From Geobacillus stearothermophilus ATCC 12980 (GTDB taxonomy: Bacteria > Bacillota > Bacilli > Bacillales > Anoxybacillaceae), in NCBI RefSeq assembly GCF_030369615.1, contig NZ_CP128495.1:1-29170 (forward strand): 29,170 nucleotides of DNA, in the 5' to 3' direction. A model generated the notes under the pieces. It was not told the origin of the DNA. It worked only from the letters and a program-made list of their open reading frames with translations, and ran no database searches. The position numbers and the translations under genes were made by a program. The first letter of the stretch is position 1, and each line of letters starts with the position of its first letter. Shown in pieces: positions 1-29,170 of the stretch.

Positions 1-30
1 GGTATACATTCCTTTTATCCCCCTTGTATC
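1..30 (-). promoter_or_regulatory. Probable start codon and RBS of the McbB-like gene across the circle junction
   Basis: Read on the minus strand, bases 30..1 contain AAGGGGG, a nine-base spacer and ATG (9..7), then TAT and ACC. If base 1 follows base 29170 these three codons run in frame into the McbB-like reading frame, which has no stop up to 29170. The join gives MYTLEDKTYYKLNQ as the N-terminus and a 297-residue protein, close to the roughly 295 residues known for McbB. This is the main evidence that the window is a closed circle. The phase and RBS are seen directly; circularity is inference. Confidence 0.75.
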
Positions 31-402
31 ATAATTTTTCAAAAGAAATTTCAATTTGTTTATGATTATCAACAGTTTTATTTATTACCCTAGGAGAAGA
101 CCCCCTCTCTATCTTCTATCTAGTATCAGCTACTGAATGTACTAAAGCCTTTACCAGTTTGCTATTAGGCATGTTTCATCATTCAACTCGAAGGTCTTCA
201 AATCCAAATCACAAATTTAGACAAGAATATGCCACCGACATCTAAAAAAATTAAACAAAATAAATCGATTATTTTTGCAATCAATTTACCTTCTCAAATT
301 ATGATGATCTCATTTGGTCAAAACCTTGGTCGATTTTTGATGAAATAAATCACAAAAACTCATTTAAATTTGCAAAAAAGTTTCATATTTGTTTTACAAA
401 AT
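10..402. other. Gene-free AT-rich spacer between precursor hairpin and mcbB-like gene
   Basis: I see no minus-strand reading frame with a ribosome binding site here, so no second precursor is supported. The plus strand has a 58-codon frame without a start codon (about 67-243). It contains a GEDPLSIFYLV stretch that faintly recalls the C-terminal part of IS4-type transposases, so it may be an old insertion scar. In the circular reading this is a roughly 390-nt leader or spacer inside the biosynthetic operon, after the precursor hairpin. Confidence 0.4.
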
Positions 403-446: not shown

Positions 447-638
447 TTAATTTTTAGTTTTGTTTACTGCACCGCCACAAGCGTAAACGATACAACAGCA
501 GTAACAGTCACCATCATTACGTGTTGAGTCCATCGTTTGAAGTGCGATTGTAGCTCCTGTTCCAAAAATCGTTGTAGAAGCCAATGAATTTTCATACTTC
601 ATAGTTGTTTTTTGATGTCTTACATCTAAAGTTTGCAT
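447..638 (-). CDS. Candidate TOMM/azole RiPP precursor peptide (63 aa)
   Basis: The peptide is 63 residues, counted from ATG 638, which lies nine bases after an excellent AAAGGAGGTGA. An in-frame GTG at 650 overlaps that RBS and is unlikely to be the start. The N-terminal part (MQTLDVRHQKTTMKYENSLA) would be the leader. The C-terminal part is rich in Thr, Ser and Gly and ends with the cluster DCYCCCIVYACGG, with Cys at 45, 47, 48, 49 and 54. Such clustered Cys with Thr/Ser is typical of substrates of YcaO cyclodehydratases, which turn them into thiazol(in)es and oxazol(in)es. No transmembrane segment or lipobox is seen. It lies divergent from the quorum-type regulator and, across the junction, upstream of the modification genes. 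I do not recognise it as a named bacteriocin. Leader/core border, number of azoles and activity are unknown. Confidence 0.75.
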   Translation of the reverse strand: MQTLDVRHQKTTMKYENSLASTTIFGTGATIALQTMDSTRNDGDCYCCCIVYACGGAVNKTKN

Positions 639-680
639 AATGATATTCACCTCCTTTAGTTAAGAAAATTCACTTAGGCT

Positions 681-826
681 CTTCACCACAAAGTGTACTT
701 GACAAAGAAAGACGATTATGATAGAGAAAATCAAAACAGCATTTTTCCTTTTTATACCACACGTCTCTTTGAGCAACATTGCTATCATGTTTGTCTTTAA
801 AAGTCAAGTACATCTTTTGGTGATGA
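681..826. promoter_or_regulatory. Divergent promoter region with two mirrored 30-bp regulator sites
   Basis: Bases 695-724 (plus strand) and 782-811 (minus strand) share GTACTTGAC-4-AAAGAC-4-ATGATAG, 23 of 30 bases identical, arranged as an inverted pair centred near 753. Weaker similarity (a TGGTGA block) extends outward to about 681 and 826. Each copy has TTGAC and, 17 bp later, a weak TAGnnA preceded by TGA, so each could be an activator-dependent promoter with an extended -10. Equally, each could be an operator of the adjacent HTH-TPR regulator. Mirror symmetry between the precursor and regulator genes predicts coordinated divergent control. Which strand each promoter uses is unresolved. 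Confidence 0.65.
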
Positions 827-893
827 ACCTTCACTTATATTTTTTTACAAAATTTGATATATTTCAATTGGGAAAATAGGAGGGAATAACTGA

Positions 894-2114
894 ATGAATA
901 TTGGGCAAATTATAAAAATCAAGAGAAAAGAACTAGGTCTTACGCAAAGTGAAGTATGTGAAGGAATTTGTTCAGTTACCCATCTGAGCAAAATAGAAAA
1001 TAATACAACTAATGTAGCAGACGATGTTATTCAACTGATTTGTAAACGCCTAAATATAAATATTGAAGAAGAAAAAAAACGCATAGAAAACATTGAATTG
1101 ATACTTAACAAATTTTATGAAGCAATGATCTTTGGGAAAGAAGAAATGGTAGATGAAATTAGAGATAAACTAGAAGAAGAATATTATTATATCGAGAACT
1201 CAGACCTATATATTTTATATAATTTATATTTAATGCGTTACTATCTGTTTAAAGAGGATTTAAATTATGCTTACAAGTTGGGAAAGGAACTAGAACATTA
1301 TCGACATAAATTTTCCCAAATAGAGAATAATTTGCTAAATCATTTTTGGGGTATATACTATATTATGACCAAAGATGGAAAAAAGTCATTAGAATTTCTA
1401 TCTAATATATCAAGAGATTACTATCATTTGTCTATAGAAATTGATTACCATTTATCGTTAGCCTATTCTTTAAATTCTTCTGCTCTACTTTCATACTATT
1501 ATGGTTCGAAAGCATTAGAACATTTTCACAAGCATAAACTCTTTAATCGCATTATCGATGCCGAAATAGTCCTTTGCATGCAACTTGCTAGAGGAGATAA
1601 AAATGAAATTTTACTGTCTATCTCCAAACTTAAAGAACTACTTGAATTTTCCAGCTCGGATTTTACAAAAGCAATTATTCTACATAATATTGGATTCAGT
1701 TTCATGAAATTAAAGAACTATGCAGAAGCTATAAAATACTATGATGAGGCACTAAAATACAAAAAAAGAGACACCTATCTGTATTTAACTTCATACTATG
1801 CAAAATTATTCTCCAAAATATTAAATAATGATATTGTTACCAAATTAGAAGCTGAAAGAGGGTTAAATATTTCTCGAAAGGTAAATAGCAAGAAATATGA
1901 GATACTGTTTCAAACGATGCTTTTGTATATTGATAATGATGGGAAGTTATATCATTTTTTAAAATCTAAAGCCTTTGATTACTTTATAAATATTAAGTTA
2001 GAGGATCATGTTGATTTTTATGGTAAAAAATTGATAGATTATTACAAATCAAAAAATAATTTAGATAAAGCACTATATATAGCAGAAAAATTAATAAATG
2101 CAAAAAAAATGTAA
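894..2114 (+). CDS. RRNPP-type (PlcR/NprR-like) HTH-TPR quorum-sensing regulator
   Basis: The 406-residue protein has an N-terminal XRE-type helix-turn-helix (about residues 4-58, including LTQSEVCEGICSVTHLSKIE) and a long all-helical C-terminal part with TPR-like repeats (for example KLKNYAEAIKYYDEALKYK near 280). This is the architecture of RRNPP sensors, which bind a re-imported peptide in the TPR domain and DNA through the HTH. Its length is nearer NprR or AimR (about 390-420) than PlcR (about 285). The start ATG follows TAGGAGGG at normal spacing. A secreted pro-peptide gene lies 16 bp downstream and the azole precursor gene is divergent, so this is probably the switch for the bacteriocin locus. 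The gene is strongly AT-rich, like the rest of the locus. Confidence 0.85.
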   Translation: MNIGQIIKIKRKELGLTQSEVCEGICSVTHLSKIENNTTNVADDVIQLICKRLNINIEEEKKRIENIELILNKFYEAMIFGKEEMVDEIRDKLEEEYYYIENSDLYILYNLYLMRYYLFKEDLNYAYKLGKELEHYRHKFSQIENNLLNHFWGIYYIMTKDGKKSLEFLSNISRDYYHLSIEIDYHLSLAYSLNSSALLSYYYGSKALEHFHKHKLFNRIIDAEIVLCMQLARGDKNEILLSISKLKELLEFSSSDFTKAIILHNIGFSFMKLKNYAEAIKYYDEALKYKKRDTYLYLTSYYAKLFSKILNNDIVTKLEAERGLNISRKVNSKKYEILFQTMLLYIDNDGKLYHFLKSKAFDYFINIKLEDHVDFYGKKLIDYYKSKNNLDKALYIAEKLINAKKM

Positions 2115-2130: not shown

Positions 2131-2271
2131 ATGAAAAAAAAGCTATTACTAATTACTCTATTAATTGGGATCTGGGGTATATTTACCACTAATATTAATA
2201 CTTCTACGCTGCATTCTGCTTCTGTTGAACCTATCACCAAACAAAGTGAACAAGACTATCCTAATCCTTGA
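2131..2271 (+). CDS. Candidate secreted pheromone pro-peptide (PapR/NprX/Phr-like), 46 aa
   Basis: This small gene begins at an ATG after a near-ideal AAAGGAGGAG and lies 16 bp after the regulator stop. The product starts MKKKLLLITLLIGIWGIF, a basic n-region plus hydrophobic segment typical of a Sec signal, and ends KQSEQDYPNP. Size, signal sequence, hydrophilic tail and position directly after an HTH-TPR regulator match the cognate peptides of PlcR, NprR and AimR. Mature signals in those systems are 5-8 residues from the C-terminus or near it; EQDYPNP is the simplest guess but is not shown by the sequence. The reading frame was translated by hand and is intact. Confidence 0.75.
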   Translation: MKKKLLLITLLIGIWGIFTTNINTSTLHSASVEPITKQSEQDYPNP

Positions 2272-7381: not shown

Positions 7382-7544
7382 GTACATTTTTGGTGTTTAT
7401 CTCGTACATTTTTGGTTGTTTCGGCGTACATTTTTGGTGTCCAGCGTACATTTTTGGTGTTTATCTCGTACATTTTTGGTTGTTTCGGCGTACATTTTTG
7501 GTGTCCAGCGTACATTTTTGGTGTTTATCTCGTACACATGTTTT
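7382..7544 (+). repeat. Iteron array of the plasmid origin (seven GTACATTTTTGGT repeats)
   Basis: Identical 13-mers GTACATTTTTGGT start at 7382, 7404, 7426, 7446, 7468, 7490 and 7510, and a degenerate eighth (GTACACATG) starts at 7532. The spacing is 22, 22, 20, 22, 22, 20, 22 bp: close to two helical turns, with a 64-bp higher-order unit repeated. This places initiators on one DNA face, as in Rep_3/RepB-type iteron origins. The initiator gene follows at 7669. Confidence 0.93.
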
Positions 7545-22139: not shown

Positions 22140-22291
22140 GCTTTTTTTGATCAAGTCCCCGGAAAAGCTCCTAACGGGAATGCTCCTTGACACTTCCGTT
22201 TTTTGATAACATTATGTTTCGATCAGAGAGCTTAACGGACAAGGAGTCTTACCGTAATTACCAATCCTTTTTAAGTGTAATAAATACAAAT
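22140..22291. other. Junction between the IS110 element and the azole-peptide locus
   Basis: No gene is supported. The GC content falls sharply near 22200. CTCCTTGACACT at 22183-22194 matches, inverted, a word on the far side of the IS110 element (20403-20414). Confidence 0.4.
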
Positions 22292-23572
22292 TTATATAAT
22301 AATTGGAAATTGATCATCTCTTTCCTTGCAACAATTAATAAAGAATTCGGGATTTTTAGTACTTATAGTCAAAGAATGTAAACCACCAAATGTATTTTTA
22401 ATAACATTTTCTACTTCCCATATGGTTATATCATCAACACACTTAAGAATTTCATCTATATTAAAAGATTTATAAATACCTAGGAGTTCTTCCTGTCCAA
22501 AGAAAAACATGCGTTGCATGATATTCTCATTTGAAAATACCAATTCACTTTTAATTGCTGTTTTACAGCGATTTAATTCATCTAGAGTAAAACCATTTTC
22601 TTTGATATCCTTAATAATACTAATTATAGTATCGTATACTTTTTTTAAGTTGTCTTCACTTGTAGAAGCTATTACTCTAAGTACCCCTATTTCCTCAAAT
22701 ATGATAGTTTGTGAATATACACTATAGACTAATCCCTTTTCTTCACGTAGGGTTTGATTTAAACGAGAGTTTCTTCCCCCACCTAAAAGGTGATTCAGGA
22801 TAAAGTAAGCATAGTAATCCCGCATAGGGGTTTTAGATGAAACACCTGGGAATACAAAGCAAATATGTGACTGATAATCAGCAGTATGTATATAATTAAA
22901 TCCTCCTTTAAATGTTACTGGACTTAAGGTTTGTTTTTGTATAACTCCTTTAGGAATAGATTCTAACATTTCTATCAATTCAATTAATGCGTTTTCTTCT
23001 ATATTTCCCGAAATTGAGACCACGGTATTACTAGGTGTATAAAATTTTTTATAAAAATTATAGACTTCATCGATAGTAAATGATTTTATATTAGATACTG
23101 TTCCTAGAATATCAAAAGCATAAGAACATGGACCAAGCGCCTGCATTAATGACTCTATTTTCACTCTCTCTAATGTATTGTCCTGGTATCGATAAATTTC
23201 CTGAATTACAACCTGTTTTTCTTTGTCAAAATCTGCATCAGAAATTGAGAAAGAAAAAATCATATCTTTTAATATACGGATAGCTTCTTTTAAATGTTCA
23301 CTCAGAATCTGCACATGGAAACAAGTTAATTCTTTTCCTGTAAATGCATTCATTTTTCCACCTAATGCTTCGATATAAGTATTTCCATACATATTAGAAA
23401 AATTAAGTTGGTTTTTAAACAACAAATGTTCAATGAAATGAGCTATTCCATTCGTCTCTTTTGTTTCATGTTTCGTTCCTACATGAACCATTACTCCAAT
23501 AGAAACCGATTTAGCGTAGGGGATTTTGTCAATTAGTAGACGAAGACCATTAGACAAACATAGTTTCCTCAT
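22292..23572 (-). CDS. M16-family zinc metallopeptidase, probable leader peptidase of the azole peptide
   Basis: The 426-residue protein is a single M16 (insulinase/PqqF/AlbF-like) unit. The inverted zinc motif HFIEH lies in NGIAHFIEHLLFKN, with a downstream Glu region (EKQVVIQEIYRYQ). The C-terminal half has the usual inactive-domain pattern (LNHLLGGGRNSRLNQTLREE; YSVYSQT). It is the last gene of the biosynthetic operon. Its start overlaps the end of the ATPase gene by 23 bp, so the two are coupled. M16 proteases mature several bacteriocins; here removal of the precursor leader is the likely job, although immunity by degradation is possible. Confidence 0.88.
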   Translation of the reverse strand: MRKLCLSNGLRLLIDKIPYAKSVSIGVMVHVGTKHETKETNGIAHFIEHLLFKNQLNFSNMYGNTYIEALGGKMNAFTGKELTCFHVQILSEHLKEAIRILKDMIFSFSISDADFDKEKQVVIQEIYRYQDNTLERVKIESLMQALGPCSYAFDILGTVSNIKSFTIDEVYNFYKKFYTPSNTVVSISGNIEENALIELIEMLESIPKGVIQKQTLSPVTFKGGFNYIHTADYQSHICFVFPGVSSKTPMRDYYAYFILNHLLGGGRNSRLNQTLREEKGLVYSVYSQTIIFEEIGVLRVIASTSEDNLKKVYDTIISIIKDIKENGFTLDELNRCKTAIKSELVFSNENIMQRMFFFGQEELLGIYKSFNIDEILKCVDDITIWEVENVIKNTFGGLHSLTISTKNPEFFINCCKERDDQFPIII

Positions 23573-24284
23573 TTAATTCTCCCCCTTGCTCCTGTATAAA
23601 CATTTGAAAAGCAATATCTGGATTCTCGGTATTATGTTTTCTTAAAAAAGACACGTAGTCTCCTTCATATAGAATCCTACCTTTATGTAAAAAATGTATT
23701 TTACAATCAATAAACTCTAGTTCATGGAGAATATGAGTAGACATAATAACCAACTTACCTTTTTTGACCAAACGGTTAATACTACTAAGTACGTAATTTC
23801 TAGTGTCAGGATCAATACCAGCAGTAGGTTCATCAAAAATATACAGTTTTCGTTCAAGTTGACAAACTGATTTGATAATAAGCCATCTTCTTTCTCCAAC
23901 AGACATATCTCCTATTCTTACATCCCATAATCTATTCAATAGTTCTTTTTCTCTTGGCGTTAAGGATTCAATAAATGTCTTTAAACTTTTCGAAAAAGAA
24001 AAAGGTGTATCGCACTTAAGAATTAGGCGAACAATGTCCTTACCTTTCATAATCGACGGAAGAGGAACACCTTGCATTTGATATACAACATCCTCTTCTG
24101 CAAATGGACTATGAAACTGTGCAGAAGGTATAACACCACTTATAATATCTAATAATGTCGTCTTTCCGGCTCCGTTTAATCCTACAATTACATTTAATTT
24201 ATTTGGATCAAATTCAATACATAATTGGTTTAAAACAGGGGATGAACGACCTTTATAGTAATGAGTTAGAGAATTTATTTTCAT
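23550..24284 (-). CDS. ABC transporter ATP-binding protein of the azole-peptide locus
   Basis: The 244-residue ATPase has Walker A GLNGAGKTT, Walker B KLYIFDEPTAG and the H-loop IMSTHILHELEF. The signature motif is unusual: SVGERRW in place of LSGGQ. It overlaps the M16 gene by 23 bp and follows the permease gene by 23 bp, so the three are one unit. With the permease it would export the mature peptide or give immunity. The start ATG follows GGAGAGAAG. Confidence 0.92.
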   Translation of the reverse strand: MKINSLTHYYKGRSSPVLNQLCIEFDPNKLNVIVGLNGAGKTTLLDIISGVIPSAQFHSPFAEEDVVYQMQGVPLPSIMKGKDIVRLILKCDTPFSFSKSLKTFIESLTPREKELLNRLWDVRIGDMSVGERRWLIIKSVCQLERKLYIFDEPTAGIDPDTRNYVLSSINRLVKKGKLVIMSTHILHELEFIDCKIHFLHKGRILYEGDYVSFLRKHNTENPDIAFQMFIQEQGGELNEETMFV

Positions 24285-24307
24285 ATTTTCTTCTCTCTCC
24301 TTTTTAT

Positions 24308-25051
24308 TTATATTCGACCTGCTTTAGGTGTAATATCTATTATTTTATAAGAAAAGACTCCTATTAAAATATAAACACCCATGATCACTACTAATGTATA
24401 CGATAATGTTATATCCCAAACATGATTAGAAACTGCATCTGAAATAAGTTTAGATACATTTAGTATAAAACTAGCAGGATTTAATACTAATAAGCTTTTA
24501 TGATTCACCTCAACATTTGCAAAATATATAAGAGGAAACATCAAAATAGTAAATATCGGCGAAATAGTTTCCTGACGATACGGCAAAGAACTTATCCATA
24601 GAAAAAGAAAGAAAATAGGTAGTGGTACTATAATAGCTACTATGATTGCAATGCTTAATACAGAAAATACAGGTTGGTGAAACAGTAGAGCGCTTGCAGC
24701 AGTAAAAATAACAAGATTGATAGTGACAAAAAACCATTGTGACCCAATCTTTCCTAATATAATTGGTAGTTTATTACGAGCAATAAATTTAAACATCTTC
24801 AGAAAACCATTATCTCGAAGCATTAGAATAGAAATCCCTACACCGCTTATTGCGGTAATTAAAATCATAAAACTCCAATATAAAAAAATATTATTTTTAA
24901 ATGATTGGAAGTTTGGAGGATTAGTCAACCAAGAAAGATGGTTAAATACCATGAAAAACAAAGGAATAACAAGTGTCCAAAGTAATGCGATTTTGTTATA
25001 AAAAACTTCTTTGTTAAACAAAATAAAAAACTCCCAGCTTTTTCTTAACAT
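24308..25051 (-). CDS. ABC-2-type permease of the azole-peptide locus
   Basis: About 247 residues from ATG 25051 (GGGGTGG upstream; an in-frame ATG at 25066 overlaps that sequence). It has about six hydrophobic segments, for example IALLWTLVIPLFFMVF, FMILITAISGVGISILML, LVIFTAASALLF, VAIIVPLPIFFLFLWIS and YTLVVIMGVYILIGVF, as expected for ABC-2 exporters. It is the first gene after a 204-bp gap from the YcaO gene, which contains a hairpin and a TATAAT box. Confidence 0.85.
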   Translation of the reverse strand: MLRKSWEFFILFNKEVFYNKIALLWTLVIPLFFMVFNHLSWLTNPPNFQSFKNNIFLYWSFMILITAISGVGISILMLRDNGFLKMFKFIARNKLPIILGKIGSQWFFVTINLVIFTAASALLFHQPVFSVLSIAIIVAIIVPLPIFFLFLWISSLPYRQETISPIFTILMFPLIYFANVEVNHKSLLVLNPASFILNVSKLISDAVSNHVWDITLSYTLVVIMGVYILIGVFSYKIIDITPKAGRI

Positions 25052-25199
25052 AAAACCACCCCTCATCTATTCTTAAATATATTTAACAAACAACTCATTC
25101 TTTCATACTTTGAAATACCTATTTTTTCGAAGGTTGGGATGTGTACGTGGTTTATGATGATCCTAATTAATCTAAACATCTATTTTTCTAACTTTACTT

Positions 25200-25252
25200 C
25201 GTATTATAATTACCGTCTGACGAACGATTTTCATCGTTTGGCTGGTAATGTA
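25200..25252 (-). promoter_or_regulatory. Hairpin and TATAAT box between YcaO and transporter genes
   Basis: ATTACC..ACGAT pairs with ATCGT..GGTAAT around TTTC (about 25211-25250). It lies about 20 bp after the YcaO stop on the minus strand and is followed there by TTATAATACG. It may be an attenuator, or the TATAAT may be the -10 of a separate promoter for the transport and protease genes; a good -35 is not seen. Confidence 0.5.
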
Positions 25253-25270
25253 TTTTTATAGATGTCTATT

Positions 25271-26419
25271 CTATGGAAATGGTATAGGTTTATGTTCGTT
25301 AGGAAAGTTATATTGACCGAGTACTTTTGAAAATATCACCTCTCTAGGATTAATTATTTCCGTTAACATATGTGGATATCCTTTATTTGTTAGAATCTTT
25401 ACGATTTTTGTAGGCACACCTTGCAAAACACAAGGGATGAAGGCGCATAAAATATCTAATTGTAAATCTTGGGAAATATTCTTTATATAGGTCATAAAAT
25501 GGGATTTTAAATCAACGTATTTGTTCTCATAATCAACCAATTTTGAATGTTCAAATAAATAGCTATAGCTTTCTTTTAATTTACTAGGTGTAAAAGTGTT
25601 AAAAAAGTAACTTGAATAATAATGCGGATCAGACATCGGGGCATTCAACTTATCCTGTTCTTCCTCACATGCCCCCTTAAAAATAATATCATCATCATCC
25701 AAATAATATTTATTCGCTCTTTCTCCAAAAAATTGGAAAAACTCCTCTAATGACTTAATTATTGCTTCTTCTAGACTCCAGCCAGCGCTTACCCCCATAG
25801 CCATATATTTCTCTCCTAATCCCAGAGAAAGAATGACATACAAATAAGGATGAAGGGAAATATCGAAAAAAAAGATATCATCCACAAATTTTTTTGCCCT
25901 ATTTATAAGTTCTTGTATTGTCCTGCTTGTAATTGTCTCCAATCTAATTTGTCTTCCTGGTGATTGAGTAAGCCAATTATGTATAAGACACTGTCGTTCA
26001 AAAAATTCTAGAAAGGCCGTATTTATAGTTTTAAAAGAACTAATGTGTGATGCGACTCCACACGAATCGCTATAATAATTAATATCTTCCACCTCATCGT
26101 CTGTAAAAATTCTCGCATCACGACACAGCAATACCTTTTTCAGAGGGACATCAACAACCTCAAGCGTTACTAGATCCAGGGCCTTTACTGTTTTGTTCTT
26201 AAAATTACCCAAATTAAGGTATAAAGAGAGACGTTCAATATGTTCCCCTAAAGCAGCTTTAGTGACTCGATTAATTTGAAAATGAGTAGCTCCACCATGC
26301 GCACCATCTAATACACTAGGTATAGCACTTACTTTTTTGGGAGCATCTTGAAATAGAGAACGATATACACGCATTTCCTTTAATAAAAACGGGGCGCCGA
26401 TTTTATGTACTTTGTACAT
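25271..26419 (-). CDS. YcaO cyclodehydratase (McbD/SagD-like), PxPxP type
   Basis: The 382-residue protein has the YcaO ATP/Mg-binding pattern: AALGEHIERLSLYL, SDSCGVASH, a FLEFFERQCLIHNWL helix (E..ER) and GVSAGWSLEEAIIKSLEEFF. It ends in PIPFP, the proline-rich C-terminus needed by azoline-forming YcaO enzymes. YcaO activates the backbone amide with ATP and cyclises Cys/Ser/Thr to azolines. It needs an E1-like partner to bind the leader, here the McbB-like protein. The ATG follows TGAGGTGAT; 12 bp separate it from the second YcaO gene. Confidence 0.93.
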   Translation of the reverse strand: MYKVHKIGAPFLLKEMRVYRSLFQDAPKKVSAIPSVLDGAHGGATHFQINRVTKAALGEHIERLSLYLNLGNFKNKTVKALDLVTLEVVDVPLKKVLLCRDARIFTDDEVEDINYYSDSCGVASHISSFKTINTAFLEFFERQCLIHNWLTQSPGRQIRLETITSRTIQELINRAKKFVDDIFFFDISLHPYLYVILSLGLGEKYMAMGVSAGWSLEEAIIKSLEEFFQFFGERANKYYLDDDDIIFKGACEEEQDKLNAPMSDPHYYSSYFFNTFTPSKLKESYSYLFEHSKLVDYENKYVDLKSHFMTYIKNISQDLQLDILCAFIPCVLQGVPTKIVKILTNKGYPHMLTEIINPREVIFSKVLGQYNFPNEHKPIPFP

Positions 26420-26431
26420 TGTTTTATCACC

Positions 26432-27484
26432 TCATATAAAAACACAGTCAGGAATATCTAGTAATTCCTTTTCTGATATCTTAATAGTTTCTTGATTAAT
26501 TTTTCTTTCAATACGTAAGTATTGTTTAATGGGAACATGATTATACAAATCTAATGAAAATACTTTGACACATTTTAAAGCCGAGTAGAATTTGTTTTGT
26601 AGTATAATAACATGTAAATTTGTTAACCATAAAGGAAAGCAGTTTCTAATATCATTATTAGTATTAATATTAATTTCTTCTCTCGTGTATATATATCCAG
26701 GTAATGATTTTAACTCCAAAAGATAAGATAATTGTTCTTCATAATTTTTTTCTGGATACTTTTCATTTAGATAACTTTTTAAAATTTCATTAGATTCCTT
26801 TTGCCATCTTAGAACATATGCCTCCTCGAGCGACTTTTGGATTGCTTCTTGCAAATGAAAGGATGAACCAACTCCGCAACAAATGATTTTTCTCTCCGTA
26901 TATACTATTGCAAATACAACATAAAGTGGCGCAAAGCTATCATTTACAAACAATTCAATGGATCCAGGCATTTCTTTGAAGTGATGGTATATGGGTATAT
27001 TTTCCAACATATTATTTGATCTTAAAGTGTATCCCTTTTTCCCATACCAAAAAAGAAATAAGGCATTCTTTTCAAGTAATTCTTTTATAGCAATTTTTAC
27101 TGCTTGGTAACTATCTGGATGAGTTGCAGTTCCGGTTGTATCAGATGGATACGGTCCTTCAGTTTGATAAGTGGTATATTCGTAAGGGAGATAAGCAGGA
27201 GCATTTCTTATAATATCCCATGTAAGAACTTCATCATTTTGATTTTTATATCCTCCTAATAATAAATTTCTCCTCTCAATCATTTCAGAGAATGACTTTC
27301 TTATAGCAAGTTGTTTAGAGAATGCAATTGCATTTGCACCATTCGGACTCATATAGCCATCCTTAACAAGCAAACCAACCATAGTAAACGCAGGATATAC
27401 AGCATTTTCTATAAATAGCGAATCCGGTTTATTGAAATGGTTCCTTTGTATATATTCAAATAACATATTTCTTACCCCCATCAT
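26432..27484 (-). CDS. Second, divergent YcaO-family protein
   Basis: The 350- to 356-residue protein also shows YcaO motifs: AFSKQLAIRKSFSEMIERRN, GTATHPDSYQAVKIAIKELL then EKNALFLFWYGKKG, and CCGVGSSFHLQEAIQKSLEE. It does not end in a proline-rich tail (it ends DIPDCVFI). Possible starts are ATG 27484, overlapping the dehydrogenase stop as ATGATG, or ATG 27466 after GGGGGT; the GTG at 27502 is less likely. Most McbBCD-type loci have one YcaO, so this second copy may act on a different residue class, add a thioamide or amidine, or form a mixed complex with the first. Confidence 0.85.
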   Translation of the reverse strand: MMGVRNMLFEYIQRNHFNKPDSLFIENAVYPAFTMVGLLVKDGYMSPNGANAIAFSKQLAIRKSFSEMIERRNLLLGGYKNQNDEVLTWDIIRNAPAYLPYEYTTYQTEGPYPSDTTGTATHPDSYQAVKIAIKELLEKNALFLFWYGKKGYTLRSNNMLENIPIYHHFKEMPGSIELFVNDSFAPLYVVFAIVYTERKIICCGVGSSFHLQEAIQKSLEEAYVLRWQKESNEILKSYLNEKYPEKNYEEQLSYLLELKSLPGYIYTREEININTNNDIRNCFPLWLTNLHVIILQNKFYSALKCVKVFSLDLYNHVPIKQYLRIERKINQETIKISEKELLDIPDCVFI

Positions 27485-28302
27485 CTTTTCTTGCCAAACC
27501 ACTGAAGTAGTACGACAGGGGCCAAACGAACATTCAACCCAGCTAGATAAGTGATAGCATTATCATTGAAACCGGACCAGCATAGATCTCCCAATTCTTT
27601 ATTTACTTCTCTTAAACTTTCACGAAAACTTTGTGCCATTAGCCCAACTTCTATTAATGCATGTCTATAACCCCTTTTCCGGTATTTTGTTACAGTCCTT
27701 CTTAAATCAATTGCATAAGCCATAGCAAAAGGTGAAATAAAATCATCTAGGCAAATAGCCACTTTAAGTTGTTCTAAATCCCTTTTATTCCAAGTTTTAA
27801 TTCGATACATAGAAATAGAAAAGGGATTAAACATATAAACACCCGGATTAGGTAAAGAGGTAATAGATTCTTTCCGTAGTACAAATAATAATGGCATCAC
27901 TGGATATAGACCACCCGCTGACCCATACCTTTTTGACATAGTTCCTTCTCCTCTTCCGAAGGCTTTGTACATAATATTCCCTAAAGTTATTTCATCCATC
28001 TGGTATGATAAGTCATAATTACGGGTGCTACCTTCTATATATGTTGGCTCAGCTACTAATGGTATCTCTTCTTCAAACGTATCTGGCAGTATATCTGTAT
28101 ACTCGACTTCCCCTAACCATGCCATTACCTCTGAACTTATAAAGTTACTCGAAGTCTCCTTTGGCTTAAAAAATACTGTCGATTGATGAAAATGAATAAT
28201 ATCTGTTAGTACCTTTTGAGAAAGCGCACGCTCTTGAAGAATATCCCAAGTTACACGTTTTCTTGCTTTCGATTCATAAATATTTTTATTCATAGCAATC
28301 AC
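27481..28302 (-). CDS. SagB/McbC-type FMN-dependent azoline dehydrogenase
   Basis: The 270- to 273-residue nitroreductase-fold protein has KRYGSAGGLYPVMPLLFVL (compare RPS.GALYP in the family), the Lys-Tyr catalytic motif KYRKRGYRHALIEVGLMAQ and SGFNDNAITYLAGLNVR. McbC is about 272 residues. It oxidises azolines to azoles with FMN. Two starts are possible, GTG 28302 or ATG 28293; GGGAG lies four and 13 bases before them. It overlaps the McbB-like gene by 17 bp (or 8) and the second YcaO gene by a few bases, so the modification genes are tightly coupled. Confidence 0.92.
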   Translation of the reverse strand: MIAMNKNIYESKARKRVTWDILQERALSQKVLTDIIHFHQSTVFFKPKETSSNFISSEVMAWLGEVEYTDILPDTFEEEIPLVAEPTYIEGSTRNYDLSYQMDEITLGNIMYKAFGRGEGTMSKRYGSAGGLYPVMPLLFVLRKESITSLPNPGVYMFNPFSISMYRIKTWNKRDLEQLKVAICLDDFISPFAMAYAIDLRRTVTKYRKRGYRHALIEVGLMAQSFRESLREVNKELGDLCWSGFNDNAITYLAGLNVRLAPVVLLQWFGKKR

Positions 28303-29170
28303 ACAACTCCCAATGAATTGGATTGTCTGTATGCAATTCTTTCGTAATTAAATCAAACATACTGCTTTCTAAAAACGCTTCGGCATGAACAACAGGGGTT
28401 TCATCTAATAAAATTAATTTACTTATTCGATTTGTTATTTGTGTCACAATATTAAATATATTATTTTGGGTGAGTGGAGTTGTAATAGGAAAAGAAGGTC
28501 GTTCCGCGTATAAACTATCTATCATATGTTGATAAGTTATATTACCTTGATTAGAAATTCGAATCTGTGATTCAATATAGGATATATGACATATATGACA
28601 CGGGGATTTTAAAAAACCATTATATAAAGCATCCATATAAAATGTATAGTTATATACATACGTAAATAATAAAAAGGACTGTTCAAAACCTTTTACGCGA
28701 TCGCGAATTTCTCTTGCTTTTTTCCGATTATACGGGTTCAAAAATACTACAACTAAATCTCCGTTTTCTACTATAATTTGTTCAGATTCCAGATGTTTAT
28801 CACATAGACTAGAAATCTCAAGAGCATGTCGGTAATCTGTTTCTAAAATTTGTTTGATATATAAACCTACCTCAGGGTTATTAGTATATAGCCTAATTCT
28901 CTTTATTCCTAAATTTGGTTTAACTTTTTCCTCTATAATTTGATATGTCTTTAAAAATATTAACGCTTCTTTTGTATCTTCTCCAAATGTTTCTTCGAAT
29001 TCTTCATAAGGTAATAGTGAATTTCCGTATTCATCCCATTTCTTTACAAAATTTTTTAACCTAGGCTCATTAATCCGCACAATGCCTTTTGCATTCTGTA
29101 ATACTATTTCACCTGTTTCTAATTCATGTAGAACATATTGATTTAATTTATAATAAGTTTTATCTTCAAG
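28286..29170 (-). CDS. McbB-like E1-type partner protein (leader binding), runs to the window end
   Basis: The frame is open to base 29170; an internal GTG at 29080 is not the true start because the family-like reading continues upstream (TYYKLNQYVLHELETGEIVL). With three more codons from bases 9..1 the protein is 297 residues, the size of McbB (about 295). It has two cysteine pairs, SPCHICHISYIESQI near the middle and WELCDCYE at the very end, matching the zinc tetrad of McbB. In microcin B17 synthetase McbB binds the precursor leader and supports the YcaO McbD. It overlaps the dehydrogenase gene. In the circular reading it is the first modification gene after the precursor. Confidence 0.88.
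   Translation of the reverse strand, partial: LEDKTYYKLNQYVLHELETGEIVLQNAKGIVRINEPRLKNFVKKWDEYGNSLLPYEEFEETFGEDTKEALIFLKTYQIIEEKVKPNLGIKRIRLYTNNPEVGLYIKQILETDYRHALEISSLCDKHLESEQIIVENGDLVVVFLNPYNRKKAREIRDRVKGFEQSFLLFTYVYNYTFYMDALYNGFLKSPCHICHISYIESQIRISNQGNITYQHMIDSLYAERPSFPITTPLTQNNIFNIVTQITNRISKLILLDETPVVHAEAFLESSMFDLITKELHTDNPIHWELCDCYE

What the first reader, a model, noticed from the sequence alone, without database searches (positions are those of the whole stretch)
22292..29170. A plasmid-borne azole RiPP (TOMM) locus with a full microcin B17-type enzyme set under peptide quorum sensing
Across the junction the order is precursor, hairpin, McbB-like, McbC/SagB-like dehydrogenase, YcaO, YcaO, ABC permease, ABC ATPase, M16 protease, with a divergent HTH-TPR regulator and pheromone pro-peptide. 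Each enzyme has clear motifs, the genes overlap, and the AT-rich composition is uniform. RRNPP-type control of an McbB-type azole peptide in a probable thermophile would be an unusual combination.
Basis: partly seen in the sequence, partly recalled or inferred. Interest (0 to 1): 0.92.

Follow-up and report, generated by a model that had tools for sequence, protein, structure and literature searches.

The report
Plasmid azole-peptide locus with pheromone sensor
A small plasmid of a Geobacillus-type bacterium carries an intact gene set for an azole-bearing antibacterial-type peptide of the microcin B17 kind, with a second conserved cyclising enzyme of unknown role and, beside it, a peptide-pheromone sensor that probably controls it.

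Summary
The window is a whole 29,170-bp contig with a Geobacillus-type plasmid backbone; its ends join inside the mcbB-like gene. A low-GC island (9.27 kb, 31% against 46%) holds a 63-aa Cys-rich precursor, a hairpin, McbB, a McbC-like dehydrogenase, two YcaOs, an ABC permease and ATPase and an M16 protease, with a divergent NprR-type regulator and propeptide. McbB, the dehydrogenase, YcaO2, the permease (weakly) and the ATPase match E. coli McbB, C, D, E and F. The second YcaO (YcaO1) has no counterpart in microcin B17, yet 25 of 29 related Bacillota loci carry both. They form two clades, both keeping the expected ATP-site glutamates. The host lacks TldD/E and pentapeptide proteins, so the M16 protease and ABC pair probably do leader removal and export/immunity. 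Quorum control is plausible but unproven: 2 of 29 relatives have a similar regulator nearby. The kind is known: lactazolicins have two YcaOs, RRNPP-linked clusters are published, and LAPs were predicted in Geobacillus. I call it a new variant of moderate interest; the open question is what YcaO1 does.

The parts
447..638 (-). precursor peptide gene, 63 aa: leader with DVRHQK...KY and FGTGA, core DCYCCCIVYAC, tail GGAVNKTKN (leader/core borders inferred)
   Evidence: 69% identical over 58 aa to the ORF upstream of mcbB in L004; [FL]GxG and Cys/Ser core shared across related loci; 98% identical metagenome protein P0001
403..430 (-). hairpin between precursor and enzyme genes, probable attenuator or mRNA-processing barrier
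   Evidence: 12 perfect pairs, loop 4; a strong stem after the precursor gene, without sequence conservation, in 19 of 24 relatives tested (z -3.0 or lower)
1..9 (-). start of the McbB-like gene (ATG at bases 9-7), which continues across the junction at 29170
28286..29170 (-). McbB-like partner protein (297 aa with the part across the junction)
   Evidence: TIGR04424 1.3e-79; alignment profile to PDB 6gos McbB 1.5e-22; C191, C194, C290, C292 invariant in 20 aligned proteins
27481..28302 (-). McbC/SagB-like FMN dehydrogenase
   Evidence: PDB 6gos McbC 3.3e-13; KY pair at 206-207 (its catalytic role is recalled, not from a call)
26432..27502 (-). YcaO1, second YcaO without the PxP-type C-terminus, role unknown
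25271..26419 (-). YcaO2, McbD-like cyclodehydratase ending PIPFP
   Evidence: PDB 6gos McbD 1.1e-9; E. coli McbD ends VPFP; E59, E62, R63, E138, E141, E226 in 26 of 26
24308..25066 (-). ABC permease, McbE-like
   Evidence: 19% identity to E. coli McbE over 239 columns, E 8e-5 against seven proteins; no NCBIfam or Pfam match
23550..24284 (-). ABC ATPase, McbF-like
   Evidence: 30% to E. coli McbF, 9e-29 against seven proteins
22292..23572 (-). M16 zinc protease, probable leader peptidase
   Evidence: PF00675/PF05193; HxxEH at 45-49 and E125
894..2114 (+). NprR-type HTH-TPR regulator, 406 aa
   Evidence: PDB NprR 4gpk 1.4e-9; AF2 pLDDT 92.3, top Foldseek match apo-NprR 5dbk 9.3e-9
2131..2271 (+). 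propeptide, 46 aa, hydrophobic N-terminus, ends SEQDYPNP; probable pheromone source
   Evidence: RBS, 16 nt after the regulator stop; such an ORF follows 8 of the 9 other same-family loci that were fetched, the two best-scoring ending YPNY and FPDY
639..893 (.). divergent intergenic region, the expected site of regulator action (inferred)
   Evidence: gene positions; no promoter excess in 1-2400

Best explanation
A probably horizontally acquired, plasmid-borne linear azole peptide (bacteriocin-type) locus. Steps: (1) the NprR-like regulator probably senses a short peptide cut from the exported propeptide and switches on the divergent precursor-enzyme transcript [inferred]. (2) The hairpin lowers read-through so that precursor exceeds enzymes [inferred; its position is conserved]. 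(3) McbB binds the leader and presents the Cys-rich core to YcaO2, which cyclodehydrates Cys to thiazoline with ATP, and the McbC-like enzyme oxidises it to thiazole, at up to five Cys [inferred from kinship to McbBCD]. (4) YcaO1 is a co-inherited second YcaO with a conserved ATP site. I think it most likely sits beside YcaO2 in the synthetase, in place of one McbD copy, or acts on the conserved tail [inference, weak]. (5) The M16 protease removes the leader, in place of the absent TldD/E, and the ABC pair exports the product and protects the cell [inferred].
For: Gene-for-gene match to E. coli mcbBCD-EF in the same order and to the solved McbBCD complex. Open frames and conserved glutamates, cysteines, HxxEH and KY. 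Precursor conserved in leader, core and tail. Both YcaOs in 25 of 29 related loci, two clades at 100/100. Host has no PF01523 TldD/PmbA and no pentapeptide protein, with controls ringing. The island 22189-29170 plus 1-2287 is AT-rich; no match was found in the plasmid records to 22292-29170 (megablast) or 1-2287 (blastn), while the flanking backbone is shared with other Geobacillus plasmids. Regulator fold and propeptide. A second McbB locus, L010, also carries an NprR-type gene and a propeptide with DPIHPPH twice.
Against: No product, transcript or binding site was seen. Promoter-like sites in 1-2400 are no more than chance (14 against 14.1). The closest relative, L004 (McbB 56%), has no such regulator within the 10 kb held on either side. 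Of the 29 other fetched top regulator relatives, only one has even a weak propeptide candidate, so HTH-TPR proteins of this breadth need not all be pheromone sensors. In L010 the regulator and YcaO1 frames are broken.
Confidence: 0.75

Rival explanations
1. The TOMM locus is real, but the NprR-like regulator and propeptide are a passenger quorum system controlling something else (sporulation, plasmid transfer, proteases).
For: Only 2 of 29 other McbB loci carry a similar regulator, in different positions and orientations; the closest relative L004 has none; the host's other NprR-like gene lies on the chromosome beside what reads like a neutral protease gene (not scanned against a family library).
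Against: The regulator shares the AT-rich island with the TOMM genes, and shared plasmid backbone begins right after the propeptide; divergent placement next to the precursor; my rough background of 0.47 such genes per Mb, a lower bound, would give about 0.25 in the 0.53 Mb of the 29 loci, against 2 seen.
Confidence: 0.22
2. YcaO1 installs a second kind of backbone modification (amidine, thioamide or other), so that the product is not a simple azole peptide.
For: Both YcaO families keep the same glutamates and are separate clades; Foldseek ranks archaeal YcaOs (Methanopyrus, Methanocaldococcus; thioamide formation recalled) first for the YcaO1 model; Travin et al. argue additional modification for the second YcaO of lactazolicins.
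Against: VIA-align ranks McbD first; none of the ten scanned proteins of the locus matched a TfuA or sulfur-transfer family.
Confidence: 0.35
3. The locus is decayed or silent.
For: About 437 nt lie between precursor and mcbB, against roughly 40-230 nt in 22 of 24 relatives; broken relatives exist (L010, L012).
Against: Each gene of the window's locus is open and the residues conserved in its relatives are kept.
Confidence: 0.07

Closest known systems
Microcin B17 operon mcbABCDEFG (E. coli; L063, PDB 6gos)
   Same: McbB, McbC, McbD, McbE, McbF counterparts in the same order; plasmid-borne; precursor gene first
   Different: extra YcaO1, M16 protease, RRNPP regulator; no pentapeptide protein in the genome, no TldD/E; core DCYCCCIVYAC without the Gly-rich array; tail GGAVNKTKN
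Lactazolicins (Travin et al. 2020, PMC7136475; section 9 read whole, first part of section 8; figures not seen)
   Same: E1-like partner, dehydrogenase, export pump, two YcaOs of which D1 lacks PxP; the YcaOs of L024, a locus I read as lactazolicin from its [Cxxx] precursor, fall in the same two clades
   Different: 63-aa precursor with no [Cxxx] repeats, M16 protease, Geobacillus-type host, RRNPP regulator
LAP clusters on other plasmids: G. thermodenitrificans pLDW-2 (L022) and Cytobacillus kochii pBkBDGP4A (L021)
   Same: McbB, SagB, YcaO, YcaO in the same order; L022 also M16 and ABC
   Different: McbB 32% and 37% identical; no RRNPP regulator found in the fetched stretches
NprR-NprX quorum system (PDB 4gpk, 5dbk)
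   Same: HTH plus TPR fold and a small secreted-type propeptide directly downstream
   Different: 19% identity in the fold alignment; propeptide ends SEQDYPNP; lies on a plasmid beside a RiPP locus
RRNPP-linked BGCs (Bernard et al. 2023, PMC10075063; section 12 read whole, passages elsewhere)
   Same: RRNPP system inside a BGC region, six on plasmids
   Different: whether any is a McbB-type LAP could not be read (supplement not open to me); 'Geobacillus' and 'YcaO' do not occur in the main text

Membership tests
[quoted passage not shown]
[quoted passage not shown]
   needs mass spectrometry
McbB family (TIGR04424) | score over the curated cut-off | tested here: met
   267.9 bits, cut-off 65
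Microcin B17 | one YcaO (McbD) | tested here: not met
   two YcaOs; E. coli operon has one
Microcin B17 | McbG pentapeptide immunity protein | tested here: not met
   PF00805 absent from the held genome, control rings in 9 of 14
Microcin B17 | Gly-rich core with Gly-Ser/Cys repeats | tested here: not met
   precursor against McbA
Microcin B17 | host TldD/E leader protease (role recalled) | tested here: not met
   PF01523 absent from the held genome, control rings in 10 of 14
Lactazolicins | second YcaO lacking the PxP C-terminus | tested here: met
   YcaO1 ends IPDCVFI, YcaO2 PIPFP; definition from PMC7136475
Lactazolicins | 83-106 aa precursor with 8-12 [Cxxx] repeats | tested here: not met
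   63 aa, DCYCCCIVYAC
Lactazolicins | auxiliary genes X1 and X2 | tested here: inconclusive
   no unassigned gene in the window's operon, but X1 and X2 sequences were not at hand to compare
RRNPP, NprR type | HTH plus TPR receptor | tested here: met
RRNPP, NprR type | adjacent secreted-type propeptide gene | tested here: met
   (46 aa, RBS, hydrophobic N-terminus); secretion itself not tested
RRNPP, NprR type | peptide-dependent regulation of neighbouring genes | not testable with these tools
   needs a reporter assay

The most novel reading that the evidence does not exclude
Bacillota McbB-type synthetases are a two-YcaO class. YcaO1 is an active partner of the McbD-like YcaO2, either in a heteromeric synthetase or installing a second ATP-dependent backbone change guided by the conserved C-terminal G[GCS][AS]..K tail of the precursor. 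In this plasmid the class is switched on by a plasmid-borne NprR-type pheromone.
Probability: 0.35. Interest if true: 0.75.

Novelty: new variant of a known kind. Interest (0 to 1): 0.5.

Why it matters
It gives a compact, probably heat-tolerant enzyme set for testing why so many Bacillota azole-peptide clusters keep two different YcaOs, a question raised for lactazolicins; my paper searches showed no answer, but they cover open-licence papers only. If the pheromone control holds, the locus could be induced with a synthetic peptide, which would make the product easy to obtain.

Tried and rejected
Rejected: streptolysin-type or plantazolicin-type assignment (the partner protein matches McbB; SagD and SagB models score below cut-off). 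Rejected: a YcaO elsewhere in the genome (only the two plasmid copies). Led nowhere: megablast and blastn of the island in plasmids, McbB in phages and viral contigs (3 pattern matches, none confirmed), Rfam at gathering scores, promoter scan. The first propeptide scans were faulty: searches did not orient minus-strand loci, and one search missed the window's own propeptide; one search replaces both. The first YcaO table misassigned L004 and is replaced. One search stopped with an error at its tree step, which was rerun. In one search the rows L016 and L016b are the same protein, and the E. coli rows sit on long branches. L009, L020 and L061 are near-copies and so not independent. Foldseek and VIA-align disagree on the first match of the YcaO1 model; families not listed there are not excluded. 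Of 129 plasmid records with a McbB match only 5 cover most of the query; I used 4 of these 5 plus one E. coli record. Paper searches; absence from print rests on these alone (open-licence PMC papers).
Full report
What is there. The window is the complete second contig (C2, 29,170 bp) of a 2.86-Mb genome in two contigs. The backbone (RepM-like replication protein, Xer-like recombinases, a ComEC-like protein, IS elements) matches 33 plasmid records, 32 of them Geobacillus, Parageobacillus or [Bacillus] caldolyticus and one Anoxybacillus. The mcbB-like gene starts at base 9 on the minus strand and continues from base 29,170, 297 aa in all, so the contig is circular or at least joined there. The stretch 22,189-29,170 plus 1-2,287 (9,269 bp) has 30.9% GC against 45.7% for the rest. 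Among 72,556 plasmid records, megablast of 22,292-29,170 and blastn of 1-2,287 found no match. In the 20 records listed of the 33, aligned parts begin at 2,288 at the earliest and end at 22,188 at the latest, by the IS110 element. I read the stretch as one acquired island.

The enzymes. McbB scores 267.9 bits against TIGR04424 (cut-off 65). A profile of 20 McbB proteins finds McbB of the solved synthetase 6gos at 1.5e-22, and four cysteines plus the C-terminus HWELCDCYE are invariant or nearly so. The dehydrogenase matches McbC at 3.3e-13, and YcaO2 matches McbD at 1.1e-9. In a direct comparison with E. coli mcb proteins (L063) the window gives McbB, McbC, McbD, McbE (weak) and McbF counterparts in the E. 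coli order. The M16 protein keeps HxxEH and a glutamate 76 residues on.

Spread. With the McbB profile or protein, matches were found in 2 of 41 genomes of the host's family (the own one and a weak one with stops), 8 of 397 of the order (own included), 2 of 398 of the phylum (own included), 7 of 295 of the family of G525 and 2 of 36 of the family of G307.

The precursor. The 63-aa precursor is 69% identical over 58 aa to that of L004. A small upstream ORF with [FL]GxG followed by a Cys- or Ser-containing core is present in 25 of the 29 loci by my reading; some cores have only one or two Cys (L007, L052, L053). L018, L023 and L024 have looser versions and I found none in L054. The window, L004, L010 and L011 share DVxHxK in the leader, and all four have M16. 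By eye, in most loci the core ends in a G[GCS][AS]-like motif and a charged tail, which E. coli McbA and the YcaO2-only locus L057 lack; that link rests on two cases. A strong stem follows the precursor gene in 19 of 24 loci tested (first 110 nt of the gap at most; z -3.0 or lower against 60 mononucleotide shuffles), with no sequence conservation. L005, L012, L015, L016 and L021 did not reach it; L007, L011, L018, L024 and L054 were not tested.

Export, immunity, leader removal. The held genome has no TldD/PmbA domain (control rings in 10 of 14) and no pentapeptide protein (control 9 of 14). The M16 protease and the ABC pair are the remaining candidates. M16 occurs in the window and 7 of the 29 others (split in L012).

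Regulation. The HTH-TPR protein is NprR-like: phmmer against PDB NprR gives 1.4e-9, and the AF2 model has pLDDT 92.3 with apo-NprR as the first Foldseek match. It is 23% identical to the host's own chromosomal NprR-like protein, which by eye has its own propeptide. The 46-aa propeptide starts 16 nt after the regulator's stop. Among the nine other same-family loci that were fetched, eight have such a propeptide, the two best-scoring ending VYPNY and IFPDY against DYPNP here. Among the 29 other fetched top profile hits in the order, only one has even a weak candidate, so the wider family is not uniform. Among the 29 other McbB loci, L010 (broken frame, with a propeptide holding DPIHPPH twice) and L055 have a regulator of this profile nearby, and L012 has a weak one (16.5 bits). 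Background: 559 profile hits in 299 genomes by my tally of the table, a lower bound because mostly six candidates were scored per genome; with an assumed mean of 4 Mb that is 0.47 per Mb, or about 0.25 expected in the 0.53 Mb of the 29 loci. The association is suggestive, not proven.

What is known. Lactazolicins (PMC7136475, section 9 whole and part of section 8) already have two YcaOs, one without PxP. RRNPP systems inside 196 BGCs, six on plasmids, are described (PMC10075063, section 12). Six LAPs were predicted in six Geobacillus genomes (PMC6160750, passages) and 117 LAP clusters in Bacillales (PMC5100339, passages). Cox et al. 2015 list the MccB17 group from E. coli and Pseudomonas (PMC4603692, section 7). 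My searches found no paper holding both RRNPP and YcaO or McbB with YcaO and Geobacillus. Hence: new variant of a known kind, interest 0.5. The strongest point is the conserved pair of YcaOs; the weakest is the quorum link.

Noticed in passing
window 10-402: About 393 nt of apparently non-coding DNA between the hairpin and mcbB; whole precursor-mcbB gaps in 22 of 24 relatives are roughly 40-230 nt. Content unexplained.
   Followed up: partly
L019:3363-3578 and L055:9241-9552: Precursors with a run of Gly followed by 12 (L019) and 9 (L055) consecutive Cys; extreme thiazole candidates.
   Followed up: no
L016:9977-15679: Virgibacillus locus with two McbB-dehydrogenase pairs, one with YcaO2 and one with YcaO1: the two YcaOs are split over two sub-clusters.
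   Followed up: no
precursor C-termini in L004-L061: G[GCS][AS]..K-like tail after the core in most two-YcaO loci, absent from E. coli McbA and from the YcaO2-only locus L057.
   Followed up: partly
window 20840-22078: IS110-family (RNA-guided) transposase directly beside the TOMM island.
   Followed up: no
window 15601-17740: Adenine DNA methyltransferase-like gene with a convergent protein that matched no NCBIfam family, AT-rich; possibly a restriction-modification pair.
   Followed up: no
window 7382-7536: Direct GTACATTTTTGG repeats just before the replication gene, iteron-like.
   Followed up: no
L010:16701-18070 (end approximate): NprR-type gene with broken frame followed by a propeptide with two DPIHPPH copies, downstream of M16 in Rossellomorea.
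   Followed up: partly
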